Origin: Lichina pygmaea
Lineage: Eukaryota; Ascomycota; Lichinomycetes; Lichinales; Lichinaceae
Reading direction: 5' to 3'
NCBI GenBank assembly: GCA_963422465.1
Contig: OY730173.1
Span: 248,001-312,000, forward strand
DNA: 64,000 bases
Shown: in pieces, positions 1,032-54,441 of the stretch
Numbering within the stretch: position 1 is the first letter of the stretch
Layout: every line of letters begins with the position of its first letter
Position numbers and translations under genes: made by a program
The notes under the pieces: generated by a model
What the model was told of the DNA's origin: nothing
The model's database searches: none
What the model saw: only the letters and a program-made list of their open reading frames with translations

Positions 1032-1634
1032 TGTTGTGGTCTGTACTGTGCCGTCCTAAGCAAGTATAGGATTAAGGGTGAGATGCGGAAGGCAGGTTGG
1101 TTCTCGCAGGAGAGGAGTGTCAAGAAGTGCGAAGGGGTTTGGTGGAACATGGTGGTGGTGACACCTGATCAATGGCTTTGTACAAAAGGATTGTATTAAA
1201 GTAGATCTAGTTGTCTGGATCACAACATGAGTTGAAGATGATTGTTCCATAGGGAACTATCACCAGACTATATAGTGCTGGTCTGTCAAGACAATCAAGA
1301 TTGTCTTGACAGTCTTGACATCAAGACAGGTGAGATTGTCTTGACAGTCCCACCATGTTATGCATCCTGCGTCAAGACAGGTGAGATTGTCTTGACACTT
1401 CATGTACACTGTGTCAAGACGGGTGAGATTGTCTTGATGCTTCCTGCACCCTGCATCAAGACTGGTGAGATTATCTTGATGCTTCATGCATGCAGCGTCA
1501 AGCCACCTGTGTTTGTCTCAACAGTCACGTGACCCTTTGTCAGTTTGGTCACTTGACTTTCCATAGTGTCCTCTTGCCTGGCCCACGGCCTGGTTGCTTA
1601 TAAATAAGTGGCTCCTATCCCAGGGATTGTAACA
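1032..1634 (-). repeat. Gypsy-A copy 1 3' LTR
   Basis: TG...CA ended on the plus strand (TGTTGTGGTC ... GATTGTAACA). Contains, left to right, an R/U5-like part, a palindromic ACTATATAGT near 1267-1276, an array of 40-odd bp repeats at about 1325-1500 and a TATAAATA at 1599-1606 facing the opposite strand. Confidence 0.9.
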
Positions 1635-1678
1635 CTACCCTCCTCTCCTTTATTCATTGTCTTGATGAATTCTTGAGT

Positions 1679-1993
1679 ATGTCTGCAAAATCACATGCCT
1701 CTGCTTACCGAAGACAACTGGCAGCCCAGATCTGTGATCATAACTTTGTGTTGCTTGCTCTGTGTGACTTCTGTGTTTTGAACCACAAGCTCTGTTTCCA
1801 AATATCTGACAACAATGATAAGTTGAAGTGCGCTGAATGCACTTGTAGTGGGAAGTCCTGTGTGTCACTTTCTTGGGAGTTGTTGAACATAACCCAAGAT
1901 AATCTTCGCAAGGATGTGGCTGCTGAAGAGGCAACACGCGACACACTCTTCGAACAGCTTGCTGCAGTGCAAGTTTGTCTGTCTTGGAAGTGA
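1679..1993 (+). pseudogene. Antisense Zn2Cys6-like ORF of Gypsy-A copy 1
   Basis: An open frame of about 105 residues opposite in sense to its host element, between the end of pol and the 3' LTR. It begins MSAKSHASAYRRQ and is collinear with the first two thirds of the 166-residue copy at 4693-5193. The cysteine series with spacings 2, 6, 11, 2 and 6 is kept. A TATAAATA lies about 80 bp upstream inside the LTR. It is shorter than the inner copy and treated as a decayed version. Confidence 0.6.
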
Positions 1994-2120
1994 AAGGTGT
2001 TGGAAGGTGCTGAGGTCTGTGCGAGGAAGAAGCTTCAGTGTCTGGTGAAAGAGATGGAGTCGGAGGGCGAGGATTTGACTTGATCAGTTATTGACACATC
2101 CCTCCTGCAGGCTGAGCTGT

Positions 2121-4048
2121 TCAGTCCTGCTTCTGCTGATACTGTCGCAGAAGAAGCTGGCAGTTCGCAAGGTTTTTGAGTGGTTCCCAGGTGTTTTCTG
2201 AGTCTGGGTATCCTTTCCACTTGACAAGGTATTGCTGACTTTTCCTAGCCAGGATCTGTTCAACTTTGAACTCTTGTTCTTCCTCTGGTTGATAATAAAA
2301 TATTTCCTGCAAGGGTGTGCTCTGGTCAGCTGGTTCAATCATTGATATATGAAAGTTTGGATGGACTCTGGCATCCCTTGGTAGTTGTATCTTGACATTG
2401 ACTGGTCCTGTTTTCTCTTTGACTGAAAATAGTCTGACCTTGATATTGTCAAGTTTCTTCATCTTTGGCTTTTTTGTTTTCTAATTTTTTGTGAGGAGGT
2501 AGACTTTATCCCCCTTCTTCAGCTGAGGTGCCATTTTCAATTTTTTGTCTATTTGGTGTTGCATCTTTTCTGAGGTCTCTTGAAGGTAGTGCCTTATCAT
2601 TGTGTGTGTTTGTTATAGAAGCTTGTCATACTGGAGTGCTTTCTCTGTGTTTGGTGAAGCTCTGCTTGGTATTCTGATGTTTGTGTGTCACCCAAAATTG
2701 GCAAAGAATAGTGATTCCTTTGTTGAGTCTGATCTGTGCTGGTTAATTGCCAGCTGTGCCACTGGTAATAGCTGTACCAAATTACTGTGGGTCTGGTTGA
2801 TGTAATGCTGTAAATAAGTCTCCAGGACTTGGTTTGCTTGCTCTGTCTGGCTGTCAGTTCATGGGTGATAGGCTGTAGACATTTTGGGTTTTGTTCCCAT
2901 GGCTGCACTGATTGTTTTCCAGTAGTTGGATGTGAAGAGTTTGTCTCTGTTGGTAATGACCGTGATTAGAACTCTGTGGTCCCTGACTAATCTGTCCAGT
3001 AGGAGGTGTCCCAACTGCTCTGCTGTGTAGGTTTCCTTGAATAGTACCACTATTAGGTATTTTGTGAATCTGTCCACAATCACCATAATTAAGTTGTAGG
3101 TGATTCCAGTGACTGGGTCTTTGGACTTGGGTAGCTTTGTGATGAAGTCCATTGACATGTCTTCCTAAGAGTCTTTTGGTATTGTGTTTGGGTGTCCTTC
3201 TCTGTATAGCTTATGTCTTCCATGTTTGTTTTTCTGGCACAGTAGACATTTGCTGATATAGCTTATGACATGTTGTCAGAGATTGATGATGTTGTTCCCT
3301 GCCTGTTAGATAAGGTCTGTGGTTTTGGTGATTCCTGGGTGACTATGTGCTGGATTATCATGGTAGTTCCTTATTAGTTCTTCAGTGTCTTCTGCTGTGA
3401 GCTTGTTGATCTGTGGTTGAGGCACCAGGTTTCCTTGCTAGTCCTGCTGTAAGATTGTTCCTTGGTGTTCATCATCTTCCATGTGGTCTATTTGTCAGCT
3501 TAGTGCGTCTGCTCTCCTATTATCTCATCCGGGAGTGTACAAGATCTTGAACTTGTGTTACCCTAGAAGTTCAGTCCATCTGACTTGTTGTCTGTTCAGC
3601 TTCTTGGTTGTTGTGAACATTGTCAGATTCTTGTGGTCTGTGAGAATGGTGAGTTCAGAACTGCTTTCCGTGTACACTCTCCAGTGTTCAAGTGCGTTGA
3701 CAACTGCCAGTAGCTCTTTGTTGTGGATATCATAGTTTTGTTCCACTTGTGACATTTTGTGTGAGTAGTAGGCAACTGGGTGCCACTTGCTGTCTGCCTG
3801 TTAGTATAGACATGCTCCCACCACTTGGTCTGAAGTGTCTGTTTTGATTTGTGTTGGCTGGCCTGTCTTGAAGTTAAGAAGAACTGGTTCCTTGGCACAA
3901 GTGTCCTTGAGCTGTTGGAATGCTTTTTGTTATCTCTCTGTCCACCAGTACTCCATGTCCTTCTTTGTGAGTTCTGTCAGTGGTGTTGCTGTCTGTGAGT
4001 AGTTCTTGATGAACTGTCAGTTGAAGTTGGCAAATCTTAGGAAGGCTT
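2121..4048 (-). pseudogene. Gypsy-A copy 1 pol fossil, 3' part (RNase H, integrase, chromodomain)
   Basis: Read on the minus strand, about 4040-3558 is RNase H (the LTDHKNLT stretch near 3640), 3420-2600 is integrase (DFITKLPKSKDP near 3140, AYHP near 2865) and 2462-2170 is the chromodomain ([17 protein letters not shown] near 2200). The 5' side of pol continues beyond the inner Gypsy-A at 10596. Many breaks; a fossil. Confidence 0.85.
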
Positions 4049-4283
4049 TGTTGCGGTCCGTACTGTACCGTCCTATCCGAGTATAGGATTAGGGCGAGAG
4101 GTGGAAGGCGGGTTGGTTCTCGCAGGAGAGGAGTGTCAAGGAGCGCGAAGGGGTTTGGTGGAACGTGGTGGTGGTGACACCTGATCAACGGCTTCGTACA
4201 AAAGGATTGTATTGAAGTAGATCTAGTTGTCTGGATCACAACATGAGTTGAAGACGATCATTCCATAAGGAAACTATCACCGG

Positions 4284-4293
4284 ACTATATAGT
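4284..4293 (-). promoter_or_regulatory. Sense TATA box of the Gypsy-A LTR
   Basis: ACTATATAGT, a perfect palindrome, at the border between the repeat array and the R/U5-like part. The same motif is at the same place in all Gypsy-A LTRs, including subtypes with unrelated repeats (24019-24027, 35941-35950, 42939-42948). Assigned as the sense promoter by its place; no transcript evidence. Confidence 0.5.
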
Positions 4294-4344
4294 GCTGGCC
4301 TGTCAAGACAATCAAGATTGTCTTGACAGTCTCGACGTCGAGAC

Positions 4345-4535
4345 AGGTGAGATTGTCTTGACAGTCCCACCATGTTATGCACCCTGCGTCAAGACGGGTG
4401 AGATTGTCTCGATGCTTCATGCATCATGCGTCAAGACTGGTGAGATTGTCTTGATGCTTCATGCATCATGCGTCGAGACTGGTGAGATTGTCTCGATGCT
4501 TCATGCATCATGCGTCGAGACTCCCGTGTGTGTCT
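4345..4535. repeat. U3 tandem repeat array with dyad symmetry (A type)
   Basis: Units beginning GGTGAGATTGTCT start at about 4345, 4397, 4439 and 4481; the last three have an exact 42 bp period. Each unit can fold on itself: GTCTCGA and TCGAGAC arms flank a CATGCATCATG core. Equivalent arrays occur in the other A-type LTRs at about 1325-1500, 10265-10480, 19865-20070, 48680-48900 and 54610-54830. Confidence 0.85.
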
Positions 4536-4612
4536 CGACAGTCACGTGACCCCTTGTTGGTTGGTCACTTGACTTCCATGGTGTCCTCTTGCCTGGCCCG
4601 CAGCCTGATTGC

Positions 4613-4620
4613 CTATAAAT
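4613..4620 (+). promoter_or_regulatory. Antisense TATA box of the Gypsy-A LTR
   Basis: CTATAAAT about 35 bp from the LTR edge, facing out of the element's 3' LTR towards the opposite-strand gene whose ATG is at 4693, about 75 bp on. In the other LTR subtypes the sequence differs but a TATA remains (GTATATAAAG type, read from 30217 to 30208 and at 43524-43533), which argues for function. Confidence 0.55.
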
Positions 4621-4692
4621 GAGTGGCTCCCATCCCTGGGTCGTAACACTACCCTCCTCTCCTTCATTCATCGTCCCGATGAATTCTTGAGT

Positions 4693-5193
4693 ATGTCTGC
4701 AAAATCACGTGCCTCTGCTTACCGAAACCAACTGGCAGCCCAGATCCGTGATCATAACTTTGTGTCGCTTGCTCCGTGTGACTTCTGTGTTTTGAACCAC
4801 AAGCCCTGCTTCCGAATGTCTGACGACAACGATAAGTTGAAGTGCGCTGAGTGCACTTGTCGGGGAAAGTCCTGTGTGTCACTTTCTTGGGAGTCGCTGA
4901 ACATGACTCGGGATAACCTTCGCGAGGATTTGGCTGTCGATGAGGCCAAGCGGGATGCTCTTGTCGAGCAGCTTGCTGAGCTGCAGGCTTGTGTGTCCCG
5001 AAAGCGAAAGGTTCTTGAGGGTGCTGAGGGTCGAGCAAAGAAGAAGCTCCAGTGCCTTGTTGCTGAAATGGAGGCGGATGGTGAAGATTTGTCGGCGACA
5101 GTCATTGACGTGTCCGCGCTGCAGGCCGAGCTGTTCAGTCCTGCTCCTGCCAGAACTACTGCAGGAGGAGCTGGCAGTTCGCAAGGTTCCTGA
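4693..5193 (+). CDS. Antisense Zn2Cys6-like coiled-coil protein of Gypsy-A
   Basis: A 166-residue protein encoded opposite to gag-pol, between the pol end and the 3' LTR. ATG at 4693 is chosen because the alignable protein starts there in other copies (MSAKS-ASAYR); the frame is open further upstream but runs into the LTR and its TATA. Cysteines at residues 29, 32, 39, 51, 54 and 61 give C-x2-C-x6-C-x11-C-x2-C-x6-C, the spacing of fungal Zn2Cys6 clusters. The usual basic run between the second and third cysteine is weak here. Residues 70-125 are rich in E, K, L and A and look like a coiled coil, as in dimeric Zn2Cys6 factors; the tail is S/A/G-rich. The last ~40 bp overlap the end of pol tail to tail. 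Function unknown; a regulator of the element is inference. Confidence 0.75.
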   Translation: MSAKSRASAYRNQLAAQIRDHNFVSLAPCDFCVLNHKPCFRMSDDNDKLKCAECTCRGKSCVSLSWESLNMTRDNLREDLAVDEAKRDALVEQLAELQACVSRKRKVLEGAEGRAKKKLQCLVAEMEADGEDLSATVIDVSALQAELFSPAPARTTAGGAGSSQGS

Positions 5194-8100
5194 GTGGCTC
5201 CCAGGTATTTTCCGAGTCTGGGTAGTCTTTCCACTTGACAAGGTATCGCTGACCTTTTCTCTTCAGGATCTGTTCAGCCTTGAATTCCTGTTCTTCCTCT
5301 GGTTGGTAATGAAATGTTTCCTGCAAGGGTGTGCTCTGGTCGGCTAATTCAATCATTGAGATGTGAAAGTTTGGGTGTACCCGAGCGTCTCTCGGTAGTC
5401 GCAGTCTGACGTTGACTGGTCCGGTTCTTTCTTCGATTGAAAATAGTCCGACCTTAACATGGTCCAGTTTCTTTGTTCTTGGTTTCTTCGTTTTCCAATT
5501 TCTTGTGAGGAGGTAGACTTTATCCCCCTTCTTTAGCTGAGGTGCCATTTTCGATTTCTTGTCCATTTGGTGTTGCATTCTTTCTGAGGTCTCTTGAAGG
5601 TAGTGCCTTATCATCGTGTGTGTTTGTCGTAGGAGCTTGTCGTGTTGGAGTGCTTTCTCCGCGTTTGGTGAAGCTCTGCTTGGCATCCTGATGTTCGCAT
5701 GTCATCCAAAATTGGCAAAAAATAGTGATTCCTTTGTTGAGTCTGATCTGTGCTGGTTGATTGCCAGCTGTGCCACCGGTAATAACTGTGCCCAATTGCT
5801 GTGGGTCTTGTTGATGTAATGCCGTAAGTAAGTCTCCAGGACTTGGTTCACTCGCTCCGTCTGGCCGTCAGTTCGTGGGTGATAGGCTGTAGACATTTTG
5901 GGTTTTGTTCCCATGGCTGCACTGATTGTCTTCCAGTAGTTGGATGTGAAGAGTTTGTCTCTGTCTGTAATGATCGTGATCAGAACTCCGTGGTCTCTGA
6001 CCAATCTGTCCAGTAAAAGGTGTCCCAACTGTTCTGCTGTGTGGGTTTCCTTGAATAGTACCACTATTAGATATTTTGTGAATCTGTCCACTATCACCAT
6101 AATCGAGTCGTAGGTGATTCCTGTGACTGGGTCTTTGGACTTGGGTAGCTTTGTGATGAAGTCTATTGACACATCTTCCCACGGGCCTCTCGGTATCGTG
6201 TTCGGGTGTCCTTCTCCATATGGCTTGTGTCTTCCATGCTTGTTTTTCTGGCATAGTAGACATTTGTTGATGTAGCTTGTGACGTGTTGTCGGAGATTGA
6301 TGACATTGTTCCCTGCCCGTTGGATCAGGTCTGTGGTTTTGGTGATTCCTGGGTGACCATGTGCTGGATTATCGTGGTAGTTCCTTATTAGTTCTTCAGT
6401 GTCTTCTGCCGTGAGCTTGTTGATCTGCGGTTGAGGTACCAGGTTTCCTTGCTGGTCCTGCTGTAAGATTGTTCCTTGGCGTTCATCATCTTCCATGTGG
6501 TCTTTTCGTCAGCTTAGTGCGTCTGCTCTCCCATTGTCTTGTCCAGGGGTGTACAAGATCTTGAACTTGTGTTGCCCTAGGAGTTCAGCCCATCTGACTT
6601 GCCGTCTGTTCAGCTTCTTGGTTGTCGTGAACGTTGTCAGATTCTTGTGGTCTGTGAGAATGGTGAGTTCAGAACTGCTTTCCGCGTACACTCTCCAGTG
6701 TTTGAGTGTGTTGACGACTGCCAGTAGCTCTTTGTCGTGGATATCATAGTTTCGTTCCGCTTGTGACATTTTGCGTGAGTAGTAGGCAACTGGGTGCCAC
6801 TTGCCGTCTGCCTGTTGGCATAGACATGCTCCCACTGCCTGATCTGAAGCGTCTGTCTCGATTCACGTCGGTTGGCCTGTCTTGAAGTTGAGGAGAACTG
6901 GTTCCTTGGCGCAAGTGTCCTTGAGCTGTTGGAATGCTTTTTGTTATCTCTCTGTCCACCGGTACTCCACGTCCTTCTTCGTGAGTTCTGTCAGTGGTGT
7001 TGCCATCTGTGAGTAGTTCTTGATGAACTGTCAGTTGAAGTTGGCAAATCCCAGGAAGGCTTGTACTTCCTTAACTGATGTCGGTGTTGGCCATTGCTGA
7101 ATCACTTTGATTTTCTCAGGGTCAATCTTGATCCCTTCAATCCCTATGATGTATCCGAGGAATTCAACTTCTGGTTTGTTGAACTCGCATTTCTTTGGGT
7201 TAAGCTTGAGCCCTGCCTTTTGTAGGCATCGTAGAACATCCTTCACATGTTTGGTATGTTCCTGTTGCGTGTTCGAGTAGACAAGAATGTCATCCAGGTA
7301 GGTGATAGCTGTTTGGTCCAGGTGTGCTCTGATGACGTTGTTGATCAATGCTTGACATGTTGCTGGTGCGTTTGTGAGTCCGAATGGCATAACCAGATAC
7401 TCGTAGTGTCTGTATCGGGTTCTGAAGGCTGTCTTCCATTCTTCTCCTTTTTTCATGTGTATCAGGTTGTATGCTCCTTTCAAGTCCAGCTTGGTAAAGA
7501 TTGTAGCTTGGCTGATCCTGTCTCGCAATTCGTTCGCATTTGGCAGCGGATATTGATTCTTGATGGTAATGTTGTTGAGTTTCCTGTAATCCACACAAAG
7601 TTGAAGACTTCCGTCTTTCTTTGGTGCAAATAGTATCAGGTATCCTGCTGGCGATTGAGATTCTCGAATGAAACCCTTTTTCAGGTTTTCCTCCAGGTAC
7701 TCGTGAAGTACTTGGAGCTCTTTCTCTGATAACTGGTAAATTGGTCCAAATCCTGGCTCCGTCCCTGGTTGCAACTTGATCTCATGATCCCAAGGTTGGT
7801 GCTTAGGCAACACTGCTGTCGTTGTCTCTTCCTGAAAGAGGTTATCATACCCAGGTCAGTACTCTTCAGGGATCTCCAGAGGGTTAACAACTTCCTCTCT
7901 CTTCATCTCTGACTGTTTGGCCACCTGGTTCCGGGGTGTGCCTGTCGAGGCGGACCTCTTCTCTTGAGAGTTGTCCTTTCTGTCGGTGAGGTTCCACTGA
8001 GGACTCCTTCCCTCATCTGTCCACGCCTTCTGCGGCTGGTAACAGGTCCGAGCTGTGTTGTTAGTGCAGTTCCTAAACATGAGTACTCCTGTCTTCCAGT

Positions 8101-8434
8101 TAACAACTGGGTTATGCTTCTTTAGCCAAGGCATCCCCAAGTAGATATCCTGAGTGGCCAACTCGACGATATCAAGGTGGATCCTTTCAGTATGGTGTCT
8201 GGTAACCATTTCCATTGGCTGCGTCTTATGGCAGACTAGCTCTGTCTGTCCATTTGCCATCGCGAGCTGATAGGGCTGCTGCTTGCGTCTCCTTCCAGTG
8301 CTGAGGGTGTCGTAAAGTTGTCTTGAAATGTAGTTTCCACTGGCTCCAGAGTCAACAAGTGTGTATGTCCATACTGGCATGTTGGCGTGTAGTGACACAG
8401 GCAATCGCAGGTGCTTTGCGTTGCTAGGGGTCAT
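5156..8434 (-). pseudogene. Gypsy-A copy 2 pol fossil, nearly whole
   Basis: Minus-strand reading gives aspartic protease at 8434-7856 (VDSGASGNYIS near 8350), RT at 7813-7031 ([11 protein letters not shown] near 7500, YLDDILVYS near 7300), RNase H at 6835-6509 (LTDHKNLT near 6650), integrase at 6496-5702 (zinc-binding HPGITKTTDL and CLLCQ near 6360-6250, DFITKLPKSKDP near 6150, AYHPRTDGQTERVNQ near 5870) and a C-terminal part at 5686-5156 ending in a chromodomain ([17 protein letters not shown] near 5230). This domain order with a chromodomain marks the chromovirus branch of Ty3/Gypsy, whose chromodomain usually steers integration to heterochromatin. Roughly half a dozen breaks; otherwise whole. 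Confidence 0.9.
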
Positions 8435-8472
8435 GTTGTTGAGCTCCTGATGTCACCCCTTGACAAGGGAGT

Positions 8473-9972
8473 TCAGTCTTTTCCTGATTGAAGTGTCTTT
8501 CCACTGACTGGGCAATGGGTCCAGCCATTCCCATCAGTCCTGAGGAATCCGTTCATGAATTTGTCTTGCTGATGCTTGTCACATCCAGGCTTGAGGCAGT
8601 ACTGCCAATTGTCGACGTAGCAGTTGTAGTTGTTGCCTTGCTGTAGGAACATGAGGCGTTCGTGCCAATCATGTGTGTGCCCGGGGAATGCGGTGTGTTG
8701 GTGTTTGTCCCAAAGATGGATCTCACACGCATCCTTCTCGCAATTGACCCAATGCTTGTGGCAGGTGGCGTGGTAGGGTGAATGTCCTCCGTACCTTCGT
8801 AGTTGTTCGTGGTAGGTGCAGTAGTGCCTCATGCAAAACCTCCACTGTAGTTCACCATGCTGTAGATTTCGTGGGTCCATGCTGTAAGCATAGCTTCCTC
8901 GTGGTATTTCTTCTTTGATAGATGCGGGTTCATCTTGGTCCCCATCAGAGGTGGTTAAGGGCTCCTGTCCCTTGTCCTGACCTGTTAGTTCTGGTAGGTC
9001 CTTGCCTCCTGATGTTGCCAGTTGGTGGGCTGCTTCCAATATCTGATCGTAGTCGTCCCATTGTTCAAGGGATAGCTGAGCCTCTCCTGGTGGGTCCTCT
9101 GGCTTGATGACATTCCAGTCTCTGTCGAGCGTATTAAGTTGCTGTCGGTGCACCTTGTTCTTTGAACGACAGTCTTTCGCCATGTGGCCTAGCTTGCCAC
9201 AGGCATAGCACTTCAGTGCTTTCCCCTTTTTGTTGTTCCTTCCCTTCGTGAACCTTCCCTTGTGGTGGACTGCATCCAGTTCCATGGGTGCATAGCCATA
9301 TGGGTCATGTGGCGGTGCCTTGTTAGGCGGCTTGTAGTGGTTGCTCACATGCCATGCGGGGTGGCTGTATCCTCTGTCGTGGTGTTTCTCCATCGCTCGC
9401 TTGAATAGTTTGTCATCAATGTCGATTGCTTGTGCGATGAGTTCGTCCAGTGTGTCAACCGCTCGTCCGTCGAAGGTAATTTCATCCTTCATGTTTTCCT
9501 TGAGTCCACGTCGGTACATGACCATCAGGGTGTCGTCGTCCCAATCAGTCAGTACTGAGTATTGTTTGAACTGTGTGGTGTACTCTGCGGCTGAGCGTTG
9601 TTGCTTGATGTGCTGGATCATTCGTATAGCCACTTTGTCTTTGTTAGATAGTCCAAGGATCCTTTTGATCTTGTCCTTGAATTGCGTCCATTTCGTCATC
9701 CATTCCGATGTGCCGTCGTGGTCTCTGTTTCCTGAGAGGTGTTTGTTGACGTAGGGCTTGATCCATCGATAAGCATTGCCTCTCATGTAAGTGGTTGCAA
9801 AGAGTGGCCACTTTTCTTTAGGCAGCTTCGTCTCTGGTTGGAATTGAAAGTAGACTTGGAGTTGCATGAGCCAGTCGTCAACCTTGTTTCTTTCGCTGTA
9901 GAACAGGTCTGGCTTGGCGACACTAATCTTTCCATCTGGGAAGTTGGGGTTGGTTGCTCCTGAGGTACTCAT
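8473..9972 (-). CDS. Gypsy-A gag, 499 residues, open throughout
   Basis: Starts at an ATG only 18 nt inside the 5' LTR. The N-terminal half is capsid-like, with a Y-F-Q-F-Q-P-E stretch near residue 42 and a W-D-D-D-T-L-M stretch near residue 145. A CCHC knuckle CYACGKLGHMAKDC lies near residue 255. Unusually, about 200 further residues follow, with three copies of C-x4-C-x2-H (CMRHYCTYH, CEKDACEIH, CLKPGCDKH) in a His-rich setting. The protein would form the particle and bind RNA. Protease begins at 8434 after a short gap in another frame. The same gag layout is seen, broken, in the other three copies. Confidence 0.88.
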   Translation of the reverse strand: MSTSGATNPNFPDGKISVAKPDLFYSERNKVDDWLMQLQVYFQFQPETKLPKEKWPLFATTYMRGNAYRWIKPYVNKHLSGNRDHDGTSEWMTKWTQFKDKIKRILGLSNKDKVAIRMIQHIKQQRSAAEYTTQFKQYSVLTDWDDDTLMVMYRRGLKENMKDEITFDGRAVDTLDELIAQAIDIDDKLFKRAMEKHHDRGYSHPAWHVSNHYKPPNKAPPHDPYGYAPMELDAVHHKGRFTKGRNNKKGKALKCYACGKLGHMAKDCRSKNKVHRQQLNTLDRDWNVIKPEDPPGEAQLSLEQWDDYDQILEAAHQLATSGGKDLPELTGQDKGQEPLTTSDGDQDEPASIKEEIPRGSYAYSMDPRNLQHGELQWRFCMRHYCTYHEQLRRYGGHSPYHATCHKHWVNCEKDACEIHLWDKHQHTAFPGHTHDWHERLMFLQQGNNYNCYVDNWQYCLKPGCDKHQQDKFMNGFLRTDGNGWTHCPVSGKTLQSGKD

Positions 9973-9980
9973 CCTTGAGG

Positions 9981-9990
9981 GTCTTCAAAG
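9981..9990 (-). other. Putative self-priming primer site next to the 5' LTR
   Basis: The ten bases after the 5' LTR read CTTTGAAGAC on the minus strand, without the TGG that begins a tRNA primer site. TTGAAGAC is the reverse complement of GTCTTCAA, found roughly 35-40 nt after the sense TATA in the 3' LTR (about 4249-4256), where a transcript 5' end could lie. This resembles Tf1/sushi-type self-priming. The match is short, so tentative. Confidence 0.35.
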
Positions 9991-10590
9991 TGTTGCGGTC
10001 TGTACTGTACTGTCCTATCCGAGTATAGGATTAGGGCGAGAGGCGGAAGGCGGGTTGGTTCTCGCAGGAGAGGAGTGTCAAGGAGTGCGAAGGGGTTTGG
10101 TGGAACGTGGTGGTGGTGACACCTGATCAACGGCTTCGTACAAAAGGATTGTATTGAAGTAGATCTAGTTGTCTGGATCACAACATGAGTTGAAGATGAT
10201 CATTCCATAAGGGAACTATCACCGGACTATATAGTGCTGGCCTGTCGAGACAATCGAGATTGTCTCGACAGTCTCGACGTCAAGACAGGTGAGATTGTCT
10301 CGACAGTCCCACCATATTATGCACCCTGCGTCAAGACAGGTGAGATTGTCTCGATGCTTCATGCATCATGCGTCAAGACTGGTGAGATTGTCTCGATGCT
10401 TCATGCATCATGTGTCGAGACTGGTGAGATTGTCTCGATGCTTCATGCATCATGCGTCAAGACTCCCGTGTGTGTCTCGACAGTCACGTGACCCCTTGTT
10501 GGTTGGTCACTTGACTTCCATGGTGTCCTCTTGCCTGGCCCGCGGCCTGATTGCCTATAAATGAGTGGCTCCCATCCCTGGGTTGTAACA
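9991..10590 (-). repeat. Gypsy-A copy 2 5' LTR
   Basis: 600 bp, same layout as the 3' LTR, with ACTATATAGT at 10226-10235 and repeat units at about 10265-10480. Differences from 4049-4648 are nearly all C/T or G/A and mostly at CpG. Confidence 0.92.
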
Positions 10591-10595
10591 GGCTT

Positions 10596-27800: not shown

Positions 27801-29680
27801 ACAGTTTATTACAAACTACTCACAGATGGCAACACCACTGACAGAACTCACAAAGAAGGATGTGGAGTACTGGTGGACAGAGAGACAACAAAAAGTATTC
27901 CAACAGCTCAAGAACACTTACACCAAGGAACCAGTTCTCCTCAACTTCAAGACAGGCCAACCGACACAAATCAAGACAGACACTTCAGATCAGGTAGTGG
28001 GAGCATGTCTATGCTAACAGGCAGACAGCAAGTGGCACCCAGTTGCCTACTACTCACGAAAAATAACACAAGCAGAACAAAACTATGATATCCACAACAA
28101 AGAGCTACTGGCAGTCGTCAACGCACTCGAACACTGGAGAGTGTACATGGAAAGCAGTTCCAAACTCACTATTCTCACAGACCACAAGAATCTGACAATG
28201 TTCACAACAACCAAGAAGCTGAACAGATAGCAAGTCAGATAGGCTGAACTCCTAGGGCAACACAAGTTCAAGATCTTGTACACCCTTGGACAAGACAACA
28301 GGAGAGCAGACGCACTAAGCTGACAAAAAGACCACATGGAAGATGATGAACACCAAGGAACAATCTTACAGCAGGACCAGCAAGGAAACCTGGTGCCTCA
28401 ACCACAGATCAACAAGCTCACAGCAGAAGACACTGAAGAACCAATAAGGAACTACCATGATAATCCAGCACATGGTTACCCAGGAATCTCCAAGACTACA
28501 GACCTTATCCAACAGGCAGAGAACAATGTTATTAACCTCTGACAACATGTCACAAGCTACATCAGCAAGTGTCTACTATGCCAGAAAAACAAACATGGAA
28601 GATATAAGCTATACAGAGAAGGACACCCGAACATGATACCAAGAGGCCTATAGGAAGATGTGTCAATAGACTTCATCATGAAGCTACCCAAGTCCAAAGA
28701 CCCAGTCACAGGAATCACCTACAACTTGATTATGGTGATAGTGGACAGATTCACAAAATATCTAATAGCAGTACTATTCAAGAAGACCCACACAGCAGAA
28801 CAGTTGGGACACTTTTTACTGGACAGATTGGTCAGAGACCACAGAGTTCCAATCACAATCATTACAGACAGAGACAAACTCTTCACATCCAACTACTGCA
28901 AGACAATCAGTGCAGCCATGGGAACAAAGTCCAAAATATCTACAGCCTATCACCCACAAACTGAGGGCCAGACAGAGTGAGCAAACCAAGTCCTGGAGAC
29001 TTACTTACAGCATTACATCAACCAGACCTACAGCAATTGGGTACAGTTATTACCAGTGGCACAGCTGGCAATCAACCAGCACAGATCAGACTCAACAAAG
29101 AAATCACTATTTTTTGCTAATTTTGGACAACATGTGAACATCAGGATACCAAGCAGAACTTCACCAAACATGGAGAAAGCACTCCAACATGACAAGCTCC
29201 TACAACAAACACACACAATGATGAGGCACTACCTTCAAGAGACCTCAGAAAGAATGCAACATCAAATACACAAGAAATCAAAAATAGCACCTCAGCTAAA
29301 GAAGAGGGATAAAGTCTACCTCCTCACAAGAAATTGGAAAACAAAGAAACCAAAGACAAAGAAACTTGACAACATCAAGGTCAGACTATTTTCAGGCGAA
29401 GAAAAAACAGGACTAGTCAACATCAAGATACAACTACCAAGGGATGCCAGAGTCCATCCAAACTTTTATATATTGATGATTGAACCAGCTGACCAGAGCA
29501 CACCCTTGCAGGAAACATTCTATTATCAACCCGAAGAAGAACAAGAGTTTGAAGTTGAATACATCCTGGCTAGGAAAGGTCAGCAATACCTTGTCAGGTG
29601 GAAAGGATACCCAGACTTGGAAAATACCTGGGAACCACTCAAGAACCTCGCGAACTGTCAGCTTCTTCTGTGACAGTTTC
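24842..29680 (+). pseudogene. Gypsy-A copy 3 gag-pol fossil
   Basis: Plus strand: gag from about 24860 (CCHC CYACGKLDHMVKDC near 25625; C-x4-C-x2-H units near 26000-26260), protease near 26400-26900 (LVDSGASGNYIS equivalent near 26475), RT 26990-27780 (YLDDILVYS near 27535), RNase H about 27880-28320, integrase 28330-29130 (DFIMKLPKSKDP near 28670), C-terminal domain with chromodomain (YLVRWKGYPDLENTWEP near 29590). Many breaks throughout. Confidence 0.87.
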
Positions 29681-29824
29681 AGCAGGAGCAGGACTGAACA
29701 GCTCAGCCTGCAGGAGGGATGTGTCAATGACTGATCAAGTCAAATTCTCACCATCCGACTCCATCTCTTTCACCAAGCACTGAAGCTTCTGCCTTGCACA
29801 GACCTCAGCGCCCTCCAACACCTT

Positions 29825-30139
29825 TCACTTCCGAGACAGACAAGCCTGCACTGTGGCAAGTTGTTCAAAGAGTGTGTCGCATGTTGCCTTGTCAGCGGCC
29901 ACATCCTCACAGAGATTGTCCTGGGACATGTTCAGAGATTCCCAGGACACAGAGACACAAGACCTTCCGCGCTGAGTGCACACAGCACATTTCAACTTAT
30001 TGTTTTCTCCTGACATCTGGAAGCACAGACAACCACAGAGAACACAAAAGTCGCAGGGTGTACGTGAAACAAAACCCTGATTGCAGATTTGAGCAGCAAG
30101 CTGAGTTCGGCTAACAGTCGCACATGACTTTGGAGGCAT
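29825..30139 (-). pseudogene. Antisense Zn2Cys6-like ORF of Gypsy-A copy 3, diverged lineage
   Basis: 104 residues from an ATG at 30139, 44 bp inside the 3' LTR edge, facing back into the element. It keeps all six cysteines with the same spacings 2, 6, 11, 2, 6 as the copy at 4693-5193, though many other residues differ (MPPKSCATVS at the start). Over 53 codons around the cluster I count 17 synonymous and 16 replacement differences against the inner copy, far from the ratio of neutral drift. TATA at 30217-30208 on the minus strand. Shorter than the 166-residue copy. Confidence 0.65.
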
Positions 30140-53700: not shown

Positions 53701-53980
53701 TGTCAAGGTCAGACTATTTTCAGTCAAAGAAAGAACTGGACCAGTCAACATCAGACTGCAACTACTGAGAGATGCTTGGGTACACCCAAACTTTCACATC
53801 TCAATGATCAAGTTAGCTGACCAGAGCACACCCCTGCAGGAAACATTTCATTACCAACTAGAGGAAGAACAGGAATTTGAGGTTGAACATATCCTGAAGA
53901 GAAAAGGTCAGCGATACCTTGTCAAGTGGAAAAACTACCCAGACTTGGAAAATACCTGGGAACCACTCACAGTTCCAGCA
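50725..53980 (+). pseudogene. Gypsy-A copy 4 pol fossil
   Basis: Protease 50725-51303 (LVDSGASGNYIS near 50800), RT 51304-52120 (a YLDNILVYS stretch near 51860), RNase H 52324-52650, integrase 52665-53460 (DFITKLPKSKDP near 52995), chromodomain 53880-53970 (YLVKWKNYPDLENTWEP). Many breaks. Confidence 0.85.
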
Positions 53981-54120
53981 GAAGCAGGACTGAACAGCTC
54001 AGCCTGCAGCACAGACATGTCAATGACTGTCGCTGACAAGTCTTCACTATCTGCCTCCATTTCAGCAACAAGGCACTGGAGCTTCTTCTTTGCTTGACCC
54101 TCAGCACCTTCCAATACCTT

Positions 54121-54441
54121 TCACTTCCAAGACAGACAAACTTGCACTGCAGCAAGCTGTTTGAAGAGTACGTCACATGTTGCCTCTTCAGTGGCTATAT
54201 CCTCACAAAGATTATCTTGGGTCATATTCAGCAACTCCCAAGAAAGCAATACACAGGACTTCCCATGATGAGTGTATTCAGCACACTTCAACTTATTGTT
54301 GTTGTCAGACATTTGGAAACAAGGCTTGTGGTTCAAAACACAGAAGTCACACAGAGCAAGTGACACAAAGTTATGATCACAGATCTGGGCTGCCAGTTGT
54401 CTTCGGTAAGCAGAGGCATGTGATTTTGCAGACATACTCAA
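54121..54441 (-). pseudogene. Antisense Zn2Cys6-like ORF of Gypsy-A copy 4
   Basis: About 107 residues opposite to gag-pol, just inside the 3' LTR, starting MSMSAKSHASAYRR. Closely alike to the copy at 1679-1993. The cysteine cluster is recognisable though partly decayed. The LTR's reverse-facing TATA lies near 54505-54516. Confidence 0.55.

What the first reader, a model, noticed from the sequence alone, without database searches (positions are those of the whole stretch)
4693..5193. Antisense Zn2Cys6-like gene inside a Ty3/Gypsy chromovirus
Each of the four Gypsy-A copies has, opposite to gag-pol and next to the 3' LTR, an ORF whose six cysteines have the C-x2-C-x6-C-x11-C-x2-C-x6-C spacing of fungal Zn2Cys6 transcription factors, followed by a coiled-coil-like region. 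Antisense ORFs in this place are known in plant Gypsy elements such as Grande and Retand, and HTLV has HBZ, but I know of no fungal chromovirus with a Zn2Cys6-type antisense gene. It may regulate the element or its host.
Basis: partly seen in the sequence, partly recalled or inferred. Interest (0 to 1): 0.88.

Follow-up and report, generated by a model that had tools for sequence, protein, structure and literature searches.

The report
Antisense zinc-cluster gene in fungal retrotransposon
A family of fungal jumping genes carries, on its opposite strand, a conserved gene for a small protein shaped like the fungal Gal4-type DNA-binding proteins, next to a promoter full of mirror-image repeats, so the element may carry its own genetic switch.

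Summary
The ORF at 4693-5193(+) is real. It lies antisense to gag-pol, between the chromodomain end and the 3' LTR of a complete Ty3/Gypsy chromovirus (4049-10590). It is a selected gene: between subfamilies A and C, dN/dS is 0.10 in this frame, and 79 of 132 differences fall at third codon positions. Capped lists show 150 type-A and 149 type-C places in this genome; named relatives occur in Dothideomycetes, Lecanoromycetes and Lichinomycetes. Six cysteines are kept in 102 of 108 relatives that span them. The predicted structure is Zn2Cys6-like (10 of 14 listed chains), with a 63-residue helix and an acidic tail. Gal4's DNA-contact lysines are not conserved, and the window protein has no Pfam Zn_clus match. 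The adjoining U3 carries an array of inverted repeats between two TATA-like boxes. U3 plus this gene form one block, about 53-82% identical between A and C, while gag-pol and R-U5 are 91-99% identical; no mismatched pair was seen among scorable copies. Best reading: an element-encoded zinc-cluster regulator of its own LTR (inferred; no RNA or binding data). Antisense genes in this place are known in fungi (brtn of Boty); new are the protein type and the exchanged U3-plus-gene block.

The parts
4693..5193 (+). Antisense ORF, 166 aa: N-terminal helix (6-21), six-Cys Zn2Cys6-like domain (29-61), SW motif (65-66), long helix 66-128, acidic tail
4777..4875 (+). Six-cysteine domain, residues 29-61
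   Evidence: sequence
4049..4648 (-). 3' LTR of the element (600 bp); reads TGTTGCGG...GTAACA on the + strand
   Evidence: 582 of 600 identical to the 5' LTR, all 18 differences transitions
9991..10590 (-). 5' LTR of the element (600 bp)
   Evidence: 5-bp target-site duplication GGCTT at 4044-4048 and 10591-10595
4302..4543 (.). U3 array: six inverted-repeat sites of the form TC(G/A)AGAC-N10-GTCT(C/T)GA; the last four start 42 bp apart
4614..4619 (+). TATAAA, candidate promoter box of the antisense gene, 79 bp before the ATG
   Evidence: at -79/-80 in most A copies and -75 in the C copies with a normal LTR; promoter role inferred
4285..4292 (-). CTATATAG (self-complementary), candidate TATA box for gag-pol transcription near the U3/R boundary
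   Evidence: role inferred
4543..4548 (.). CACGTG palindrome kept in most A copies, in the C copies and in the D LTR
4667..4683 (+). Inverted repeat TTCATCG-TCC-CGATGAA between LTR and start codon, overlapping a short upstream ATG frame (4679-4690)
   Evidence: 45 of 50 copies (some transitions allowed)
4649..4665 (-). Polypurine tract (pyrimidine-rich on +) next to the 3' LTR
   Evidence: sequence
5156..5701 (-). End of pol with chromodomain; its 3' end overlaps the antisense ORF tail-to-tail by 38 bp
   Evidence: (PF00385 E 2.7e-13; SH3_Tf2-1 3.9e-12)
5702..9984 (-). Rest of the gag-pol region in pieces (integrase, RNase H, reverse transcriptase, protease, gag with CCHC knuckle), frames interrupted
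   Evidence: domain names other than chromodomain/SH3 by inspection (recall)
1679..2176 (+). Second copy of the antisense ORF, mosaic (A-type start, C-type end), two stops
29642..30139 (-). Third copy, C type, two TGA stops
53938..54435 (-). Fourth copy, mosaic, one internal stop, one Cys lost

Best explanation
The ORF is a real, selected accessory gene of this chromovirus lineage (shown). It encodes a small Zn2Cys6-like protein with a long coiled-coil-like helix and an acidic tail (fold predicted, composition shown). It is most likely transcribed antisense from a promoter at the U3 end of the 3' LTR (TATA-like box kept; transcription inferred). It most likely binds as a dimer to the inverted-repeat array in U3 (inferred), which lies between this promoter and the presumed gag-pol promoter. 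Because U3 is present in both LTRs, the same sites would sit at the gag-pol promoter in the 5' LTR and at the regulator promoter in the 3' LTR, so the protein would regulate its own element and related copies in trans. U3 and this gene have been exchanged between lineages as one block (shown), which would give a new regulator-plus-operator pair at once (inferred). The sign is open; I lean slightly to activation because the tail is acidic in all 81 members measured.
Confidence: 0.5

Rival explanations
1. The protein has a Zn2Cys6 fold but acts on host genes or chromatin (for example integration choice or host silencing), not on the element's own LTR.
For: Some antisense accessory proteins of plant elements are nuclear and their function is unknown (PMC7264820, passages). 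The DNA-contact residues differ from Gal4. The ORF keeps its place beside pol in 24 of 27 matches, which by itself says nothing for U3 as the target.
Against: An inverted-repeat array lies in the adjoining U3 and differs between A and C together with the ORF.
Confidence: 0.2
2. The protein binds nucleic acid of the element's particle or its RNA (chaperone or nuclear export, as for CERV of Cer1), and the U3 repeats are ordinary enhancers bound by host factors.
For: U3 enhancer repeats are common in LTRs (general knowledge); an accessory protein of the LTR element Cer1 is required for nuclear export of its genomic RNA (PMC10309623, title in listing).
Against: A Zn2Cys6-like fold followed by a long helix is the layout of sequence-specific DNA-binding dimers (general knowledge); the gene is antisense, so its message is not the genomic RNA.
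Confidence: 0.12
3. The antisense RNA itself is the effector (double-stranded RNA and silencing of gag-pol), and the protein is secondary.
For: Proposed for antisense transcripts of plant elements (PMC7264820, passages).
Against: Purifying selection acts on the protein: omega 0.10 and six Cys kept over deep divergence.
Confidence: 0.1
4. Chance open frame or shadow of another coding frame.
For: A 173-aa frame (no start codon asked for) is open on the opposite strand in the window copy.
Against: In the A, C and D reference copies all five other frames contain stops, and only the antisense frame is stop-free, with omega 0.10-0.19. One opposite-strand frame also has a low omega (0.19-0.24), as expected for a mirror of a selected frame, but it has 2-4 stops per copy.
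Confidence: 0.01

Closest known systems
brtn, antisense gene of Boty elements of Botrytis cinerea and Sclerotinia (Zhao et al. 2011 Virology; paper not held, known from PMC7264820 section 5 and passages of PMC8365987, PMC4227169, PMC5987419)
   Same: Fungal chromodomain Ty3/Gypsy element with an extra antisense gene between pol and the 3' LTR.
   Different: No BRTN sequence could be had, so homology and the six-Cys fold were not compared; none of the passages read mentions a zinc cluster in BRTN. It may well be the same family.
TRP28 (PF04195) antisense ORFs of plant Retand elements (PMC11963269, abstract and passages)
   Same: Antisense ORF between pol and 3' LTR, predicted DNA binding, tandem repeats nearby in about half, suggested regulator.
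   Different: Different protein domain; no TRP28 match for the window protein; Retand is not a chromovirus; [quoted passage not shown]
Fungal Zn2Cys6 transcription factors (Gal4, Ppr1, Pho7)
   Same: Six-Cys spacing, predicted fold, then a long helix.
   Different: Basic residues in the second triad rather than at Gal4 K17/K18; encoded antisense in a retrotransposon; no large regulatory domain.
HBZ of HTLV-1 (recall)
   Same: Antisense gene started from the 3' LTR, a transcriptional regulator.
   Different: bZIP protein, no zinc cluster; not compared by sequence here.
Immunity region of temperate phages (recall; analogy only)
   Same: Repressor and operators exchanged together as one block.
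   Different: No relation; regulation not shown here.

Membership tests
Zn2Cys6 (Pfam Zn_clus PF00172) | C-x2-C-x6-C-x(5-12)-C-x2-C-x(6-8)-C (pattern recalled) | tested here: met
   102 of 108 spanning proteins match a loose form of it; of the 64 A3 members spanning both triads 60 have the 6-residue first loop and 4 parse with a longer one
Zn2Cys6 (Pfam Zn_clus PF00172) | Pfam gathering score | tested here: not met
   Window protein: no match at E<=10. 28 of 85 A3 members match at E<=1; of the 10 scanned singly P0157 reaches 21.4 against 21, in a half-profile match. Hence called Zn2Cys6-like, not filed as a member
Zn2Cys6 (Pfam Zn_clus PF00172) | Fold: two short helices after Cys pairs, then linker and coiled coil | tested here: met
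   (predicted model; 10 of 14 rows)
Zn2Cys6 (Pfam Zn_clus PF00172) | Basic DNA-contact residues in first triad | tested here: not met
   K/R at 14 of 64 and 3 of 64; varies in the family, not strictly defining
Zn2Cys6 (Pfam Zn_clus PF00172) | Binds two zinc ions and DNA | not testable with these tools
   needs protein
Ty3/Gypsy chromovirus | Chromodomain at the integrase C-terminus, LTRs, TSD | tested here: met
brtn-type antisense accessory gene | Antisense gene between pol and 3' LTR of a fungal chromovirus | tested here: met
   definition from PMC7264820 section 5
brtn-type antisense accessory gene | Sequence homology to BRTN | not testable with these tools
Retand/Grande aORF (TRP28) | PF04195 domain | tested here: not met
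   window protein, E<=10 (filters drop most matches above 0.1)

The most novel reading that the evidence does not exclude
A retrotransposon-encoded zinc-cluster regulator and its U3 operators form an exchangeable specificity cassette in Pezizomycotina chromoviruses: each element class controls only LTRs of its own class, and class changes by one template switch that replaces regulator and operators together.
Probability: 0.3. Interest if true: 0.9.

Novelty: new variant of a known kind. Interest (0 to 1): 0.72.

Why it matters
If true, a widespread group of fungal retrotransposons carries its own transcription factor, in a fold that fungi use for many of their regulators, with its target sites in the same promoter. 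That would make it directly testable whether LTR elements limit or activate themselves, would give a function to the antisense genes known since Grande and brtn, and would offer a source of new small zinc-cluster proteins for fungal genomes.

Tried and rejected
Chance or shadow frame: rejected. Zn_clus by Pfam alone: too weak for the window protein. A profile of the whole protein against PDB found only coiled coils and chance (6 hits, best E 0.14); the Cys region alone was needed. Antisense ORF in the other Gypsy families of the window: no further match at E<1. Relatives with DNA context in IMG/VR and in prokaryote genomes: none (20 and 11 pattern stretches, none confirmed). An apparent exception, the A ORF of L004 without an A U3, was first suspected as a mismatch; an A U3 lies 3.5 kb upstream on the same strand, so it reads as an insertion. 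The A-D comparison was void, because the alignment took the second copy in L032; one search replaces it for the ORF. Literature: no report of a zinc-cluster antisense gene in a retrotransposon in the listings (open-licence PMC only; 10 to 20 rows listed per search, 3, 8; Zhao 2011 not held). Papers: passages of PMC7264820 (plus its section 5), PMC11963269, PMC8365987, PMC4227169 and PMC5987419 were read; all others were seen in listings only.

Rows dropped: A3 holds 84 of 193 retrieved proteins plus the window ORF, chosen by me as full length or covering most of the family; worn close copies were left out, among them the six with Cys to Tyr. One search counts all 193 (one of them, P0036, is the window's own 1679 copy). 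Two of 50 copies (L033, L034; ORF start destroyed) were left out. The diagnostic sites were defined on 32 A and 8 C copies and exclude transitions. The regular expressions were written from the observed units, so they describe and do not test.

Full report
WHAT IS THERE. The window lies in an unnamed 32.5-Mb genome of 8 contigs (C5:248001-312000). A complete Ty3/Gypsy chromovirus spans 4049-10590: two 600-bp LTRs, 582 of 600 positions identical, all 18 differences transitions, and the 5-bp duplication GGCTT on both sides. Its gag-pol is on the minus strand and ends with a chromodomain (PF00385, E 2.7e-13). Between the pol stop (5156) and the LTR, on the plus strand, is a 166-aa ORF (4693-5193). 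Only 38 bp overlap pol. Four copies occur in the window, each next to and opposite the chromodomain; over the window and 20 fetched stretches 24 of 27 ORF matches are so placed, the exceptions being L034 (next to another element), L037 (no chromodomain found) and one copy at the edge of L035.

IT IS A GENE. In the same genome 150 type-A places and 149 type-C places were scored, both lists capped. Most stops seen there are TGA, which fits decay of CGA codons by RIP or CpG deamination (inference). Between less worn A and C copies the antisense frame has dN 0.18, dS 1.80 (near saturation), omega 0.10, and differences of 32/21/79 at codon positions 1/2/3; A-D gives 0.10, C-D 0.19; all other frames of these copies contain stops. 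pN is below pS in each of four segments of the ORF.

THE PROMOTER. Reading from the ATG outward, A copies have the inverted repeat TTCATCG-TCC-CGATGAA (45 of 50 copies of all types), the LTR edge at -45, TATAAA at -79/-80, CACGTG at about -150 in most, then an array of inverted repeats TCGAGAC-N10-GTCTCGA, six sites in the window copy, the last four 42 bp apart, then CTATATAG. The last box is at -408 in many A copies and at -366, -450, -491 or other values in the rest while the inner boxes stay fixed, so the array varies in length. C copies have the same layout with a different repeat, GTGAGC or GCGAGC-N12-GCTCAC. Perfect 7-bp inverted repeats exceeded all 500 shuffles in three of the four A and C U3s tested, 5 of 500 reached it in the fourth, and the D LTR showed no excess. 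This is a candidate divergent promoter with the repeats between its two TATA-like boxes; that these boxes work is inference.

A SWAPPED BLOCK. Along one A and one C element gag-pol and the R-U5 part of the LTR are 91-99% identical per 100 bp, like two A copies (90-100%). U3 (53-72%), the ORF (68-82%) and the chromodomain end (rising to 97% by +800) form one divergent block. One template switch during minus-strand synthesis would move U3 plus the 3' gene (established mechanism, recalled). In 48 aligned copies, 46 have U3 and ORF residues 1-71 of the same type, none mismatched, 2 not scorable; three mosaics (window 1679, window 54435, L038 second copy) switch type after +213, in the long helix. 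Over the genome, of the 40 best matches of each U3 type, 77 of 80 directly precede an ORF of their own type, none the other type. Because the pieces adjoin, this fits a matched regulator-operator pair but does not prove it. The residues between Cys 2 and 3 differ between types (VLNHKP in A, VLRGRP in C, VLRGQP in D).

HOW IT PROBABLY WORKS. See Best explanation. Shown: gene, selection, cysteines, layout, block exchange. Predicted: fold, helix. Inferred: transcription, dimer, zinc, binding to U3, regulation, its sign.

KNOWN OR NEW. [quoted passage not shown] A Monilinia transcript resembles BRTN (PMC5987419). Retand antisense ORFs carry TRP28, predicted to bind DNA (PMC11963269). In nine literature searches (open-licence PMC only) no listing reported a zinc-cluster antisense gene in a retrotransposon. 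Whether BRTN is a member of this family could not be tested.

Noticed in passing
L017 (ATG at 1498) and L032 (ATG at 1516), C7:1389267: The intact D-type ORF has an LTR in the opposite orientation right at the polypurine-tract border, i.e. a chromovirus 3' end next to an inverted LTR.
   Followed up: partly
L033 about 1426-1510, L034 about 1504-1560: The ORF start is replaced by an inverted LTR end at about codon 20-28: insertions into the antisense gene.
   Followed up: partly
window 4679-4690: A three-codon upstream frame (ATG AAT TCT TGA) precedes the antisense start codon in the window copy and overlaps the conserved inverted repeat.
   Followed up: no
window 1032-4048 and 10591 onward: The element is nested in another element of the same family, whose pol it interrupts at 4048.
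   Followed up: partly
own-genome copies: Most stops in the ORF are TGA, and all 18 LTR differences of the window element are transitions: RIP-like or CpG decay.
   Followed up: partly
window 4752-5273 (-): A 173-aa frame is open on the sense strand opposite the ORF in the window copy; every opposite-strand frame has stops in the A, C and D reference copies.
   Followed up: yes
L037 8867-9199 (+): Weak match to the antisense-protein profile (E 0.00096, 11.8 bits), away from the C-type copy in that locus.
   Followed up: no
relatives P0161, P0163, P0167, P0178: Metagenome relatives of similar architecture end in aromatic-acidic tails (FWQS, FWDS), reminiscent of activation domains.
   Followed up: no
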